The notes below the pieces were generated by a model. That model was not told the DNA's origin and did not search any database. It was given only the letters and a program-made list of their open reading frames with translations. The translations under genes and the position numbers were made by a program. A stretch of DNA of 64,000 nucleotides, from the NCBI GenBank assembly GCA_030272155.1, contig CP126202.1, forward strand, positions 62,001 through 126,000, given 5' to 3'. Positions 1 to 64,000 of the stretch are shown here, piece by piece; the first letter of the stretch is position 1; each line of letters starts with the position of its first letter. This DNA is from Tetradesmus obliquus. Lineage: Eukaryota; Chlorophyta; Chlorophyceae; Sphaeropleales; Scenedesmaceae.

Positions 1-3000
1 AGTGACGTGCTGGTGCTGGGCAACACCACGCTCTGGGAGATGGGCAACAAGTGAGTGGCGCACTGCCGCAACAAGCGGCTTGTGCATTGGCATGTGTTTG
101 GAGATGCAGAGCCAGGTGCACTTTTTTACTGTTGTGCGGACAACTCTGAAACCACCACGCTCTGGGAGATGGGCAACAAGTCAGTGCAGCGGCATGTGTT
201 GACAAGTTAGTGTGCCTTGATGAGTGCGCAAAGGCACAGCTAGGTTGACTTTATTTACAGATGTGTGGTTGGCAGGCAACACAGCGCTCTGGAATATGGG
301 CAACAAGTGGGTGGCGCAGCGTGTGATGTTCATGAGCTAATAGAGGCAGAGCTTGGTTGCCTTTCTGTACAGATGTGCCGGCTTGCAGGCAACACCCATG
401 TCGGGGGATATGGGCCACTGGTGGCGCGCACCAGCAGCATACATATGCGCACGTGCACATGCACTGACAGAGCCATATCTCGCTCCAAAAAGCATGGTGC
501 TGCAATAGCAGCACATGCACGAACACGTGGGTGTACTCACAAGGTCAGGAATGTGCAAGGCGCTGCGTGCTGCCTGCGAGACGCTTGCGCCTGCGTCACA
601 GCAAGCACGGCCAGTTGGCAGTGGACTGGCTCACTGCAGCACTCCTTATGTCGCCTCGCCACACTGCACCACCCCCCTGCTGCCCTGCACCACACTGCAC
701 CACCCCCCTGCTGCCCTGCACCCCTCGCTTCACCCCCCTGCTGCCCTGCACCCCTCGCTTCACCCCCCTGCTGCCCTGCACCCCTCGCTTCACCCCCCTG
801 CTGCCCTGCACCCCTCGCTTCACCCCCCTGCTGCCCTGCACCCCTCGCTTCACCCCCCTGCTGCCCTGCACCCCTCGCTTCACCCCCCTGCTGCCCTGCA
901 CCCCTCGCTTCACCCCCCTGCTGCCCTGCACCCCTCGCTTCACCCCCCTGCTGCGCTAGGTACCTGCGCTGCAGCAAGGACGTGCAGTTCAACAGTGACA
1001 TCCTCAAGTACGCGCTGGGCGAGACCAACTACTGGAACTACATCTACCACAACGGCCCCGGCTCCCTGTTCAGCGGCTACATGTGGAGCCTGGACGTGTT
1101 TGTGGACTACGCATGGGCGCAGCTGGGCACACTCAACAACGTGCTGGTGGTGCTGCTCATCGTGGAGGTGCGGCGAAGCATTACAGTACTGATTAGCAGT
1201 GCAGACCGTACGCTTGGGCACTTTCCACTGTCTCGTGTGTAATGTATGTATCTGCCTTTAGCTGGTGGTGCTGCTCATCGTGGAGGTGCGGATGGTTACT
1301 AGCAGTGCAGCATACTGTGACGAGACACTTTCAGTCGTATGTTGGTATTGTACATGTACACGCTGCGTGTTGCTGGGTGCTGCTCATGGTGGAGGTGCGG
1401 ATGATGTGATGAGCAGCACAGCAAGTGCGCTGGGGCGCCTACCAACCGTTGTTGCTCTGTGTGTACATGCTGTGAGTTTCGCGTGCTGCACATCCCTGCA
1501 GATGTGCGGCGCAGGACCAAAAAGCATTCACAGGGGTTTCAGTTGCATGTGTAGCACTGGATGCTCTGAGCTGGCACACTCTCACCAAGCCCCGTGTAGG
1601 CCATGTGCTGAGCTCAGCTTGGCCGAACGGCTCGGCTAGGAGCTGCCGGCTACTGCATGCTGGTGCCATGTGCACCAACCCCAGGTGGTGCATTGAGACT
1701 TGATTGATTTCAAACCTCCTGCTGCTGCTGCTGCTGCTACTGCCGCTGCTACTGCCGTGTTCCGCTGCGCCAGGCTGTGCTGGTACAGCTGGTGTCCATG
1801 AGCTATAAGTTTGCACTTGGTAGCTCGTACCTTCCTCATGCTGCTGCTGCTGCTGCTGCTGCTGCTCATGCTGGTATCTGACTGTTGTACCGTTGCTGCT
1901 TGCAGGCTGTGCTGGTGCAGCTGGTGGCCATGAGCTATGAATTTGTGCTGCTCAAGGCGGCCAACTGCGAGGCCATGAAGCGCTTCAGCGTGTTCCTGGC
2001 ACTGCCCAGCGCCACCATCCGCAGCATGGCGGCGCGACAGATGCAGGTGCGGCTGGCAGCAGAGGGCAGCAGCCTGGCAGAGCAGCAGCAGCAGCAACAG
2101 CAGTGTGGTGCAGCCCATGCTGGTGTGTTTAGTGGAGGTTGGTGTGATGGACGCCAGGTGTGCCTACGCATCATGCACATGTGACGCCAGGTGTGCCTAC
2201 GCATCATGCACATGTGACGCCAGGTGTGCCTACGCATCATGCACATGTGACGCCAGGTGTGCCTACGCATCATGCACATGTGACGCCAGGTGTGGCTACG
2301 CATCATGCACATGTGACGCCAGGTGTGGCTACGCATCATGCACATGTGACGCCAGGTGTGCCTACGCATCATGCACATGTGACGCCAGGTGTGCCTACGC
2401 ATCATGCACATGTGACGCCAGGTGTGCCTACGCATCATGCAGATATTCAACATAGTGCTGGACACAACATCATCTGCGCACAGTGCTGATCAGCGGCTCA
2501 TGCCTGTCTGTATTCTGGTGACATCTGTCAATGTTTGTGTTCATCCTGTTGTGGCTCATACCATCTAAGGTGGTGCCAGGACCCACATGTAACTATCCTG
2601 TCTCAATGTTTGATCGCCTTGCAGGTTGATGATGACGACCGCAGTGACATTGACGATGACGAGCTGGAGGCCATCAACGCGACAGCAGCAGCAGCAGCCA
2701 CGGAGGGAGAGCCCACAACAGCAGGTGGCGCAACCAGCAAGGATGGAGACAAGCAGAAGAGCGTGCGCATGAGCGTCACGGGCGCGCCAGGTGAGAGGGC
2801 GCAACCGGGCCGGGCAGGGTGCAGTCACGCGGCTGCTGTGTGCACGGTTGCACGCAACAACTCAGGATCCGGAGTACAACTGTGCCGCTACTGTCATGAA
2901 CACTGCCAGCAGCAGCAAGGTGCAGTCCTAGTCAGCCCCACCGGCACAGCTGCGGCTTACTGGCTGTGTAGTGCTTGCCACGCCCCCCCTCACATGCCTG

Positions 3001-64000: not shown

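What the first reader, a model, noticed from the sequence alone, without database searches (positions are those of the whole stretch)
1..64000. Introns of nearly every gene are filled with tandem decayed copies of the adjoining exon edge and its splice site
Seen directly in at least seven unrelated genes on both strands. The copied unit spans a splice junction: acceptor plus 20-100 nt of exon start in the upstream intron, or exon end plus donor in the downstream intron. Copies sit beside the exon they mimic, spaced about 80-265 bp, one to six per junction, and show graded divergence. True exons are the copies that keep frame and family sequence. Established background: tandem duplication of AG|GT-containing segments is one proposed route of intron gain. 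Here it seems recurrent and gene-wide, which I do not know as a described genome property.
Basis: partly seen in the sequence, partly recalled or inferred. Interest (0 to 1): 0.9.

Follow-up and report, generated by a model that had tools for sequence, protein, structure and literature searches.

The report
Introns built from buried exon edges
In a stretch of the genome of the green alga Tetradesmus obliquus, many introns are padded with decayed copies of the edge of the neighbouring exon, most still beside a good-looking splice site, which suggests that these introns grew step by step at their ends and buried older exon edges inside.

Summary
The organism is Tetradesmus obliquus. In four modelled window genes (importin-5, eIF3i, a PLAA-like WD40 gene, Psb27) 35 of 62 exon edges have intronic copies. 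In three genes recognised in random loci it is 3 of 32 (Snu114 3 of 16; UBA3-like and PsbS-like none). In importin-5 and eIF3i, 45 exon-edge copies lie in the same-side intron in direct orientation; none on the other side, elsewhere in the gene or inverted. Arrays hold half of the intron length there.

The new point is what a copy is: 15-90 nt of exon edge ending near the splice junction. Splice dinucleotides are intact in 67 of 71 scorable copies, yet the intron sequence beyond is mostly unrelated to the true flank. Copies are not coding: 19 of 22 indels break frame; using a copy would add an open in-frame insert in 1 of 52. So most are not simply decayed junction-spanning tandem duplicates. 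I infer recurrent intron accretion: the exon edge is duplicated, joined to new intron-like sequence with its own splice site, and in some arrays amplified in tandem. The source of the new sequence could not be tested because the genome search did not complete.

The parts
53372..64000 (+). Importin-5 (Kap121/IPO5-like) gene, part: exons 1-14 of the model lie in the window, the 15th runs over its end, two more lie in flank locus L003; over all 17 exons 20 of 32 exon edges have intronic copies, 43 copies
   Evidence: PDB match to human importin-5; exon models; copies
24051..28174 (+). eIF3 subunit I gene, 7 modelled exons (first exon not modelled); 6 of 12 exon edges have copies, 9 copies
   Evidence: PDB match; listed at 100% to T. 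obliquus OEZ85_004795 over 319 aa; copies
45087..51280 (-). PLAA/Doa1-like WD40 gene, 8 modelled exons; 8 of 14 exon edges have copies, 14 copies, GT/AG intact in 14 of 14. Edges placed by script; the acceptor of model exon 7 is doubtful
   Evidence: WD40 and Doa1 (3odt) matches; model and copies
12901..14321 (+). Psb27 gene, 3 modelled exons; acceptor of exon 2 (13621) has 3 upstream copies
   Evidence: Pfam PSII_Pbs27; model and copies; TRF period about 150 at 13194-13618
55804..56369 (+). Array upstream of importin-5 exon 5: five acceptor-side copies, spacing 95-126 bp
59531..60099 (+). Array downstream of importin-5 exon 9: six donor-side copies, spacing 84-105 bp, several distinct spacer families
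60345..60578 (+). Array upstream of importin-5 exon 10: outer copy 39/39 identical in the exon part with an unrelated but pyrimidine-rich acceptor flank; inner unit in phase
62414..62707 (+). Array downstream of importin-5 exon 12: two donor-side copies in phase; similarity ends 11 nt past the outermost junction
61874..62239 (+). Array upstream of importin-5 exon 12: three acceptor-side copies
57938..58305 (+). Array downstream of importin-5 exon 7: three donor-side copies
58601..58945 (+). Array upstream of importin-5 exon 8: three acceptor-side copies
61352..61581 (+). Two donor-side copies downstream of importin-5 exon 11 (75/75 and 69/76 in the exon part)
25178..25423 (+). Two donor-side copies downstream of the eIF3i exon ending at 25177
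26221..26719 (+). eIF3i intron with a donor-side copy (26296-26333) and an acceptor-side copy (26560-26622)

Best explanation
Splice-junction-anchored intron accretion. In rare events the terminal 15-90 nt of an exon is duplicated and the duplicate is joined, at the splice-site consensus (CAG|G or AG|GTG), to a new stretch of some tens to about 190 nt of intron-like DNA with its own working splice site. The edge that stays attached to the exon body uses the new flank. The former edge, with its old splice site and old flank, is left inside the intron. Once two exon-edge repeats lie about 100 bp apart they can recombine or slip, giving in-phase tandem units in some arrays. Buried edges are then neutral and decay. 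They can persist because the true edge is always the one closest to the other end of the exon, as a splicing machinery that recognises exons as units would choose. Shown: same-side direct geometry, exon part conserved but intron flank mostly unrelated, intact splice signals, lack of coding constraint, share of intron length. Inferred: exact anchoring at the junction as a property of the event, the DNA process (template switching or staggered-break repair with filler, using splice-consensus microhomology), the source of the new flank, and exon definition.
For: Geometry: 45 same-side copies, 0 opposite side (4 edges had no opposite intron), 0 elsewhere in the gene, 0 inverted; 1 hit in 22 searches with exon middles. 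Exon-only: 47 copies of the 40-nt exon edge against 7 of the 40-nt intron flank; exon part 0.90-0.91, adjacent intron 0.62-0.64, unrelated baseline 0.53; beyond the outermost copy the alignment gains a score of only 0-20 in 24 of 26 arrays, over 0-13 nt in 12 of them; CAGG at left and GTG[AC]G at right ends of repeat blocks, pooled over all loci, weaker in random loci alone. Unrelated flanks still carry splice signals: pyrimidine share 0.73 in 23 copies, 0.68 in 22 true acceptors, 0.46 at 745 other intronic AG; 27 donor copies agree with the original at +1,+2,+3,+5 (0.93-1.00) but less at +4 (0.63). Not just age: in the 10 copies with a homologous flank, exon part and flank differ by 7.6% and 12.0%, about the factor two expected of neutral DNA; in Snu114 two 137-bp units are identical and match the true exon over 54 nt, yet the outer flank is unrelated. 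Neutrality: copy-unique changes 16/27/32 by codon position, 19 of 22 indels not multiples of 3, 1 of 52 copies would add an open in-frame insert. Growth: 6620 of 13163 intron nt lie in arrays; mean intron 598 nt, 297 without them; rho 0.83 between copies and length in 22 introns.
Against: No source was found for the spacers: 3 of 45 exceed the largest shuffle score within 6 kb, one of these against its own exon; one weak hit of 22 introns in 264 kb of this genome; the whole-genome search did not complete. Copy by copy, with a very cautious bound on age, only 7 of 50 flanks are individually too divergent for plain duplication at p<0.01, and 10 of 50 flanks are clearly homologous. Splice-anchoring is not clearly above control for local repeats in the rest of the window and in 15 random loci. 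No RNA or population data.
Confidence: 0.5

Rival explanations
1. Plain tandem duplication: random units of about 100 bp that happen to span a splice junction survive because the transcript is unchanged, then decay; the exon side stays recognisable longer because only one of the two copies mutates freely.
For: Same-side direct geometry; arrays with clear spacer homology, 10 of 50 flanks clearly homologous with about twice the exon-part divergence; copies not coding; in the copy-by-copy test 43 of 50 flanks do not reject it; small tandem duplications are a common break-repair product (PMC8355091, passages seen).
Against: Exon part 0.91 while flank is 0.64 near a 0.53 baseline, also between two intronic copies (0.90 and 0.62), where both halves should age alike; 9 of 50 spacers resemble the outer flank; in Snu114 two units are identical, 54 nt match the true exon, and the outer flank is unrelated.
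Confidence: 0.25
2. Unequal exchange between strongly diverged alleles or paralogues whose introns no longer align but whose exons do; each copy is the homologous edge from another haplotype.
For: Unrelated flanks that both look like working splice sites; third-position excess among differences, 0.117 against 0.049 and 0.048, shared differences 3/2/13.
Against: Several exon edges are 100% identical, hard to combine with unalignable introns; no second copy could be looked for because the genome search did not complete.
Confidence: 0.1
3. Functional decoys or alternative edges: the copies are kept by selection as splice sites, for example to regulate splicing.
For: Splice dinucleotides intact in 67 of 71 scorable copies; donor positions +3 and +5 kept while +4 varies, strong pyrimidine tracts.
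Against: Copies accumulate frame-breaking indels; 1 of 52 would give an open in-frame product; the two closest relatives read are 325 aa without repeats.
Confidence: 0.1
4. Assembly artefact.
For: No reads could be inspected.
Against: Copies differ from the exon by graded substitutions and indels, occur on two contigs and both strands, and the contigs are chromosome-sized.
Confidence: 0.05

Closest known systems
Intron gain by tandem genomic duplication of an AGGT-containing exon segment (reviewed in PMC3443670, passages read)
   Same: Local direct duplication of exon sequence next to splice consensus; mRNA kept intact by splicing
   Different: Here existing introns get longer; copies carry one exon edge, lie only on that edge's side and are separated by mostly unrelated intron-like spacers
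Intron gain during repair of staggered breaks, insertion flanked by short direct repeats (same review)
   Same: Insertion flanked by a direct repeat of the target
   Different: Repeat is a 15-90 nt exon edge ending at an existing splice junction, repeated many times per gene
Introners (PMC9860276, passages seen)
   Same: Adds intron sequence in several genes
   Different: Introners create new introns from related elements, some with 3-9 bp target duplications; these introns have one weak non-local match in 264 kb
Small tandem duplications from break repair (PMC8355091, passages seen)
   Same: Similar size of duplicated segment (experimental overhangs of about 50 bp)
   Different: No anchoring at splice sites in the passages I saw

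Membership tests
AGGT tandem-duplication intron gain | The intron equals the duplicated segment, so exon-start copies would begin at the donor of the preceding exon | tested here: not met
   Outermost copies lie 105-563 nt from their edge, less than the length of their intron in each case, with mostly unrelated sequence beyond
AGGT tandem-duplication intron gain | Direct local duplication of exon sequence beside AG|GT | tested here: met
   CAGG and GTG[AC]G at block boundaries
Plain tandem repeats | Adjacent copies homologous over the whole unit | tested here: inconclusive
   Clear for the first pair in 5 of 15 multi-copy arrays (score 60 or more), unclear or absent in the rest and for most outermost flanks
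Introners | Insert has near-identical relatives in many introns | tested here: inconclusive
   1 weak hit of 22 introns in 264 kb; whole genome not searched
Break-repair insertion with direct repeats | Insert flanked by direct repeat of the target | tested here: met
   Exon-edge repeats flank spacers; the repair process itself was not tested
Alternative (tandem) exons | Copies keep reading frame and both splice sites | tested here: not met
   19 of 22 indels break frame; in 24 of 26 arrays the exon part stops after 26-78 nt; 1 of 52 would be an open in-frame insert

The most novel reading that the evidence does not exclude
T. obliquus introns grow by splice-site shuffling: DNA synthesis switches between unrelated introns at the shared splice consensus, so that an exon edge is recopied next to another intron's end, the old edge is buried, and the intron keeps a fossil record of its former splice sites. 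This process would account for much of the excess intron length of this species over its relatives.
Probability: 0.25. Interest if true: 0.88.

Novelty: new variant of a known kind. Interest (0 to 1): 0.7.

Why it matters
How introns get longer is poorly explained outside transposon-rich genomes. Mean intron length in T. obliquus is 462 bp, against 230-302 bp in three other Sphaeropleales and Chlamydomonas reinhardtii (PMC5966456, passages read), and Craig et al. leave the cause of long introns in Chlamydomonas relatives open (PMC8226300, passages read). Here half of the intron length in two genes sits in arrays of buried exon edges, and taking them away leaves 297 nt, close to the relatives. 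The arrays are a natural record of old splice sites with ages that can be read from sequence. They also offer a test of how a splicing machinery ignores strong-looking decoy sites: every buried site found lies outside the true exon.

Tried and rejected
Intron gain by AGGT duplication: rejected by the position of the copies. Copies as coding or alternative exons: rejected by indels, offsets (16 of 53 multiples of 3) and open-insert count. Local source of the spacers within 6 kb on either strand: 3 of 45 exceed the largest shuffle score, none convincing. Dispersed repeats as spacers: one weak hit. An annotation-free splice-boundary scan gave a clear signal in importin-5 and eIF3i only (acceptor 0.137 against 0.016, donor 0.216 against 0.102; the motif was trained on their own sites), the same trend in Snu114 on 7 blocks, and no clear one in the rest of the window or 15 random loci; the stricter first version gave 3 acceptor-like and 5 donor-like of 106 (controls 0.013, 0.050) and 3 and 1 of 114 (controls 0.012, 0.009). 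CTG-repeat acceptors tend to lack copies, but weakly (p 0.025-0.35 by threshold and gene set). Long stop-masked translations found nothing in PDB or Pfam. First spanning test was stricter: 19 of 44 edges, with 31% of intron points, 23% of exon-interior points and 15% of points over the window as control. The copy-by-copy test of flank age was weak: 7 of 50. A ThiF (UBA3-like) and a PsbS-like gene have no copies at 12 and 4 modelled edges. A nine-exon PLAA-like model failed and the ninth exon was left out. Paper searches for a description of the phenomenon; none of the listed titles or abstract starts describes it, and papers not in that library were not seen.

Full report
What the window is. 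It is bases 62001-126000 of contig 12 of a 104.66-Mb assembly of 17 contigs. A reconstructed eIF3i of 319 aa is listed at 100% identity and coverage to Tetradesmus obliquus OEZ85_004795 (on reading the sequences one residue differs), so the organism is T. obliquus or extremely close. Genes identified: importin-5, eIF3i, Psb27 and a DCC1-like protein, a WD40 gene with a Doa1 match that I call PLAA-like. In L006 there is an EFTUD2/Snu114 gene and in L008 a gene with ThiF matches; the names UBA3-like and PsbS-like are my recognition, and the PsbS-like piece had no Pfam match.

Observation. Local direct repeats cover 28% of the unmasked window (satellite included), 20-44% of four flanking 10-kb loci and 0-40% of 16 random 10-kb loci, five of which have 3% or less; two shuffles per locus gave at most 32 bits against the 45-bit cut. 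Gene models for importin-5 (17 exons, partial gene) and eIF3i (7 exons) have GT-AG introns throughout and a continuous frame. At their 44 exon edges 53 intronic copies score above threshold, on 27 edges. One, a 20-bp repeat, was dropped, leaving 52 copies on 26 edges: importin-5 20 of 32, eIF3i 6 of 12. A stricter test that the best alignment must span the junction gave 19 of 44.

Replication. PLAA-like gene 8 of 14 edges and 14 copies, Psb27 1 of 4 and 3 copies. From random loci: Snu114 3 of 16 edges and 6 copies, UBA3-like 0 of 12, PsbS-like 0 of 4. Window 35 of 62 against random 3 of 32, Fisher p = 6e-6. In these later genes a script chose the splice sites near typed anchors; at least the acceptor of PLAA-like model exon 7 looks misplaced.

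Geometry. With 40-nt edge queries, 45 copies lie in the intron on the same side, none in the opposite intron (4 edges had none to test), none elsewhere in the gene and none inverted; 11 exon middles searched on both sides gave one hit in 22 searches. No wrong-side copies were counted in the other genes, where the printed count covers only edges that also had same-side copies. This is what duplication in place would give and what random insertion would not.

What a copy consists of. Exon-edge queries of 40 nt find 47 copies, intron-flank queries of 40 nt find 7; 13 of the 47 have a flank at least 70% alike and 5 of the 7 an exon side at least 70% alike. Profile around the edges: exon bases within 20 nt of an edge have copies at 52% of points, the intron 20-60 nt away at 13-17%. 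Between true edge and copy the exon 30 nt agree at 0.91, the next intron 30 nt at 0.64; between two copies 0.90 and 0.62; unrelated intron pieces 0.53. The aligned exon part is 15-90 nt, median 46, with the query capped at 90; the later dropped 20-bp repeat has no exon part, and two other copies do not reach the junction. Extending from the junction, the true exon and its first copy stop agreeing after 26-78 nt of exon in 24 of 26 arrays (156 nt in two). On the intron side of the outermost copy the extension scores 0-20 in 24 of 26 arrays; it ends within 13 nt in 12 of them and wanders on at low score in the other 12; two arrays have clear homology there. For the first pair in the 15 arrays with several copies, the intron side scores 60 or more in 5 (my tally). 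So in-phase E-S units exist but are not the rule. 9 of 50 spacers resemble the sequence beyond the outermost copy. Spacers are 33-185 nt in the script's measure.

Splice signals of the copies. Of copies where both splice positions align, 45 of 48 keep GT or AG in importin-5 and eIF3i, 14 of 14 in the PLAA-like gene, 3 of 3 in Psb27, 5 of 6 in Snu114: 67 of 71. Copy acceptors have a pyrimidine share of 0.73 (23) against 0.68 in 22 true acceptors and 0.46 at 745 other intronic AG; 27 donor copies agree with the original at +1, +2, +3, +5 (0.93-1.00) but only 0.63 at +4. So both flanks look like working splice sites, often of different origin.

Age and neutrality. Differences from the exon are 0.049, 0.048 and 0.117 by codon position. 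Changes unique to one copy are 16, 27, 32; changes shared by copies 3, 2, 13, as expected if the exon drifted at silent sites and copies are free. 19 of 22 indels are not multiples of three. Reading from a copy splice site to the true edge would be in frame and open in 1 of 52 cases. Offsets are multiples of three in 16 of 53. In the 10 copies with a homologous flank the exon part differs by 7.6% and the flank by 12.0% (chosen for a good flank, so biased low). In Snu114 exon 4 two 137-bp units are identical, 54 nt of them match the true exon without a change, while the outer flank is at 0.53. Hence the unrelated flanks are not simply old. Caution: copy by copy, with twice the upper 97.5% bound of exon-part divergence, only 7 of 50 flanks fail at p<0.01. 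Copies within an array are not independent.

Intron growth. In importin-5 and eIF3i 6620 of 13163 intron bases lie between a true edge and its outermost copy. Mean intron 598 nt, 297 nt without them; copies per intron and length correlate with rho 0.83 in 22 introns, which is partly built in because arrays add length. Published means are 462 bp for T. obliquus and 230-302 bp for three other Sphaeropleales and C. reinhardtii (PMC5966456, passages).

Mechanism. The clearest arrays read E S E S E|X: E an exon edge ending at the splice site, S a spacer, X an unrelated outer flank with its own splice signal. In-phase repetition of E-S is explained by recombination or slippage between E repeats (inference). 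The founding step, a duplicated edge joined to new S at the splice consensus, needs a process that uses that consensus. Template switching between introns by CAG|G or AG|GTG microhomology would do it and predicts that S exists elsewhere in the genome. Staggered-break repair with filler is the fallback (direct repeats flanking gained introns are described in PMC3443670, passages; 50-nt overhangs yielding small tandem duplications in PMC8355091, passages). The test of the source failed: local regions within 6 kb gave nothing convincing, 264 kb of this genome one weak hit, and the genome-wide search did not answer in any attempt. Buried edges always lie farther from the opposite exon end than the true one, so a machinery that pairs the nearest sites across an exon would ignore them. 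This is inference.

Limits. No reads, no RNA, no second strain; genome-wide prevalence rests on three recognisable genes and 16 loci; boundary motifs were not clearly enriched in other local repeats, so much local duplication in this genome may be of another kind.

Noticed in passing
window 36709-42132: A 5.2-kb array of a 179-bp satellite, about 29 copies, with a higher-order pattern: copies 538 and 1441 bp apart (92% and 94%) are more alike than neighbours (89%).
   Followed up: no
window, e.g. 4849-4959, 9858-10053, 15838-15911, 55367-55715: Very many CTG/CAG runs; long CTG runs often serve as the tract before acceptors, and such acceptors tend to lack exon-edge copies (weak).
   Followed up: partly
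window 25195-25367: An AATAACATGTCAT-like minisatellite lies in the spacers between eIF3i exon-edge copies.
   Followed up: no
L001, L002 and window 1.8-6.5 kb: Coding pieces of what looks like one large membrane protein with PAS-like parts (recognised by eye only), in the window also with exon-edge copies.
   Followed up: no
window 670-954, 2150-2441, 2967-3161: Three nearly perfect minisatellites of 30, 33 and 32 bp, about 6 to 9.5 copies each.
   Followed up: no
L001-L004, flanks of the window on C12: Local-repeat cover is higher around this window (20-44%) than in most random loci, in L004 from only 4 repeat pairs; the window lies within 130 kb of a contig end.
   Followed up: partly
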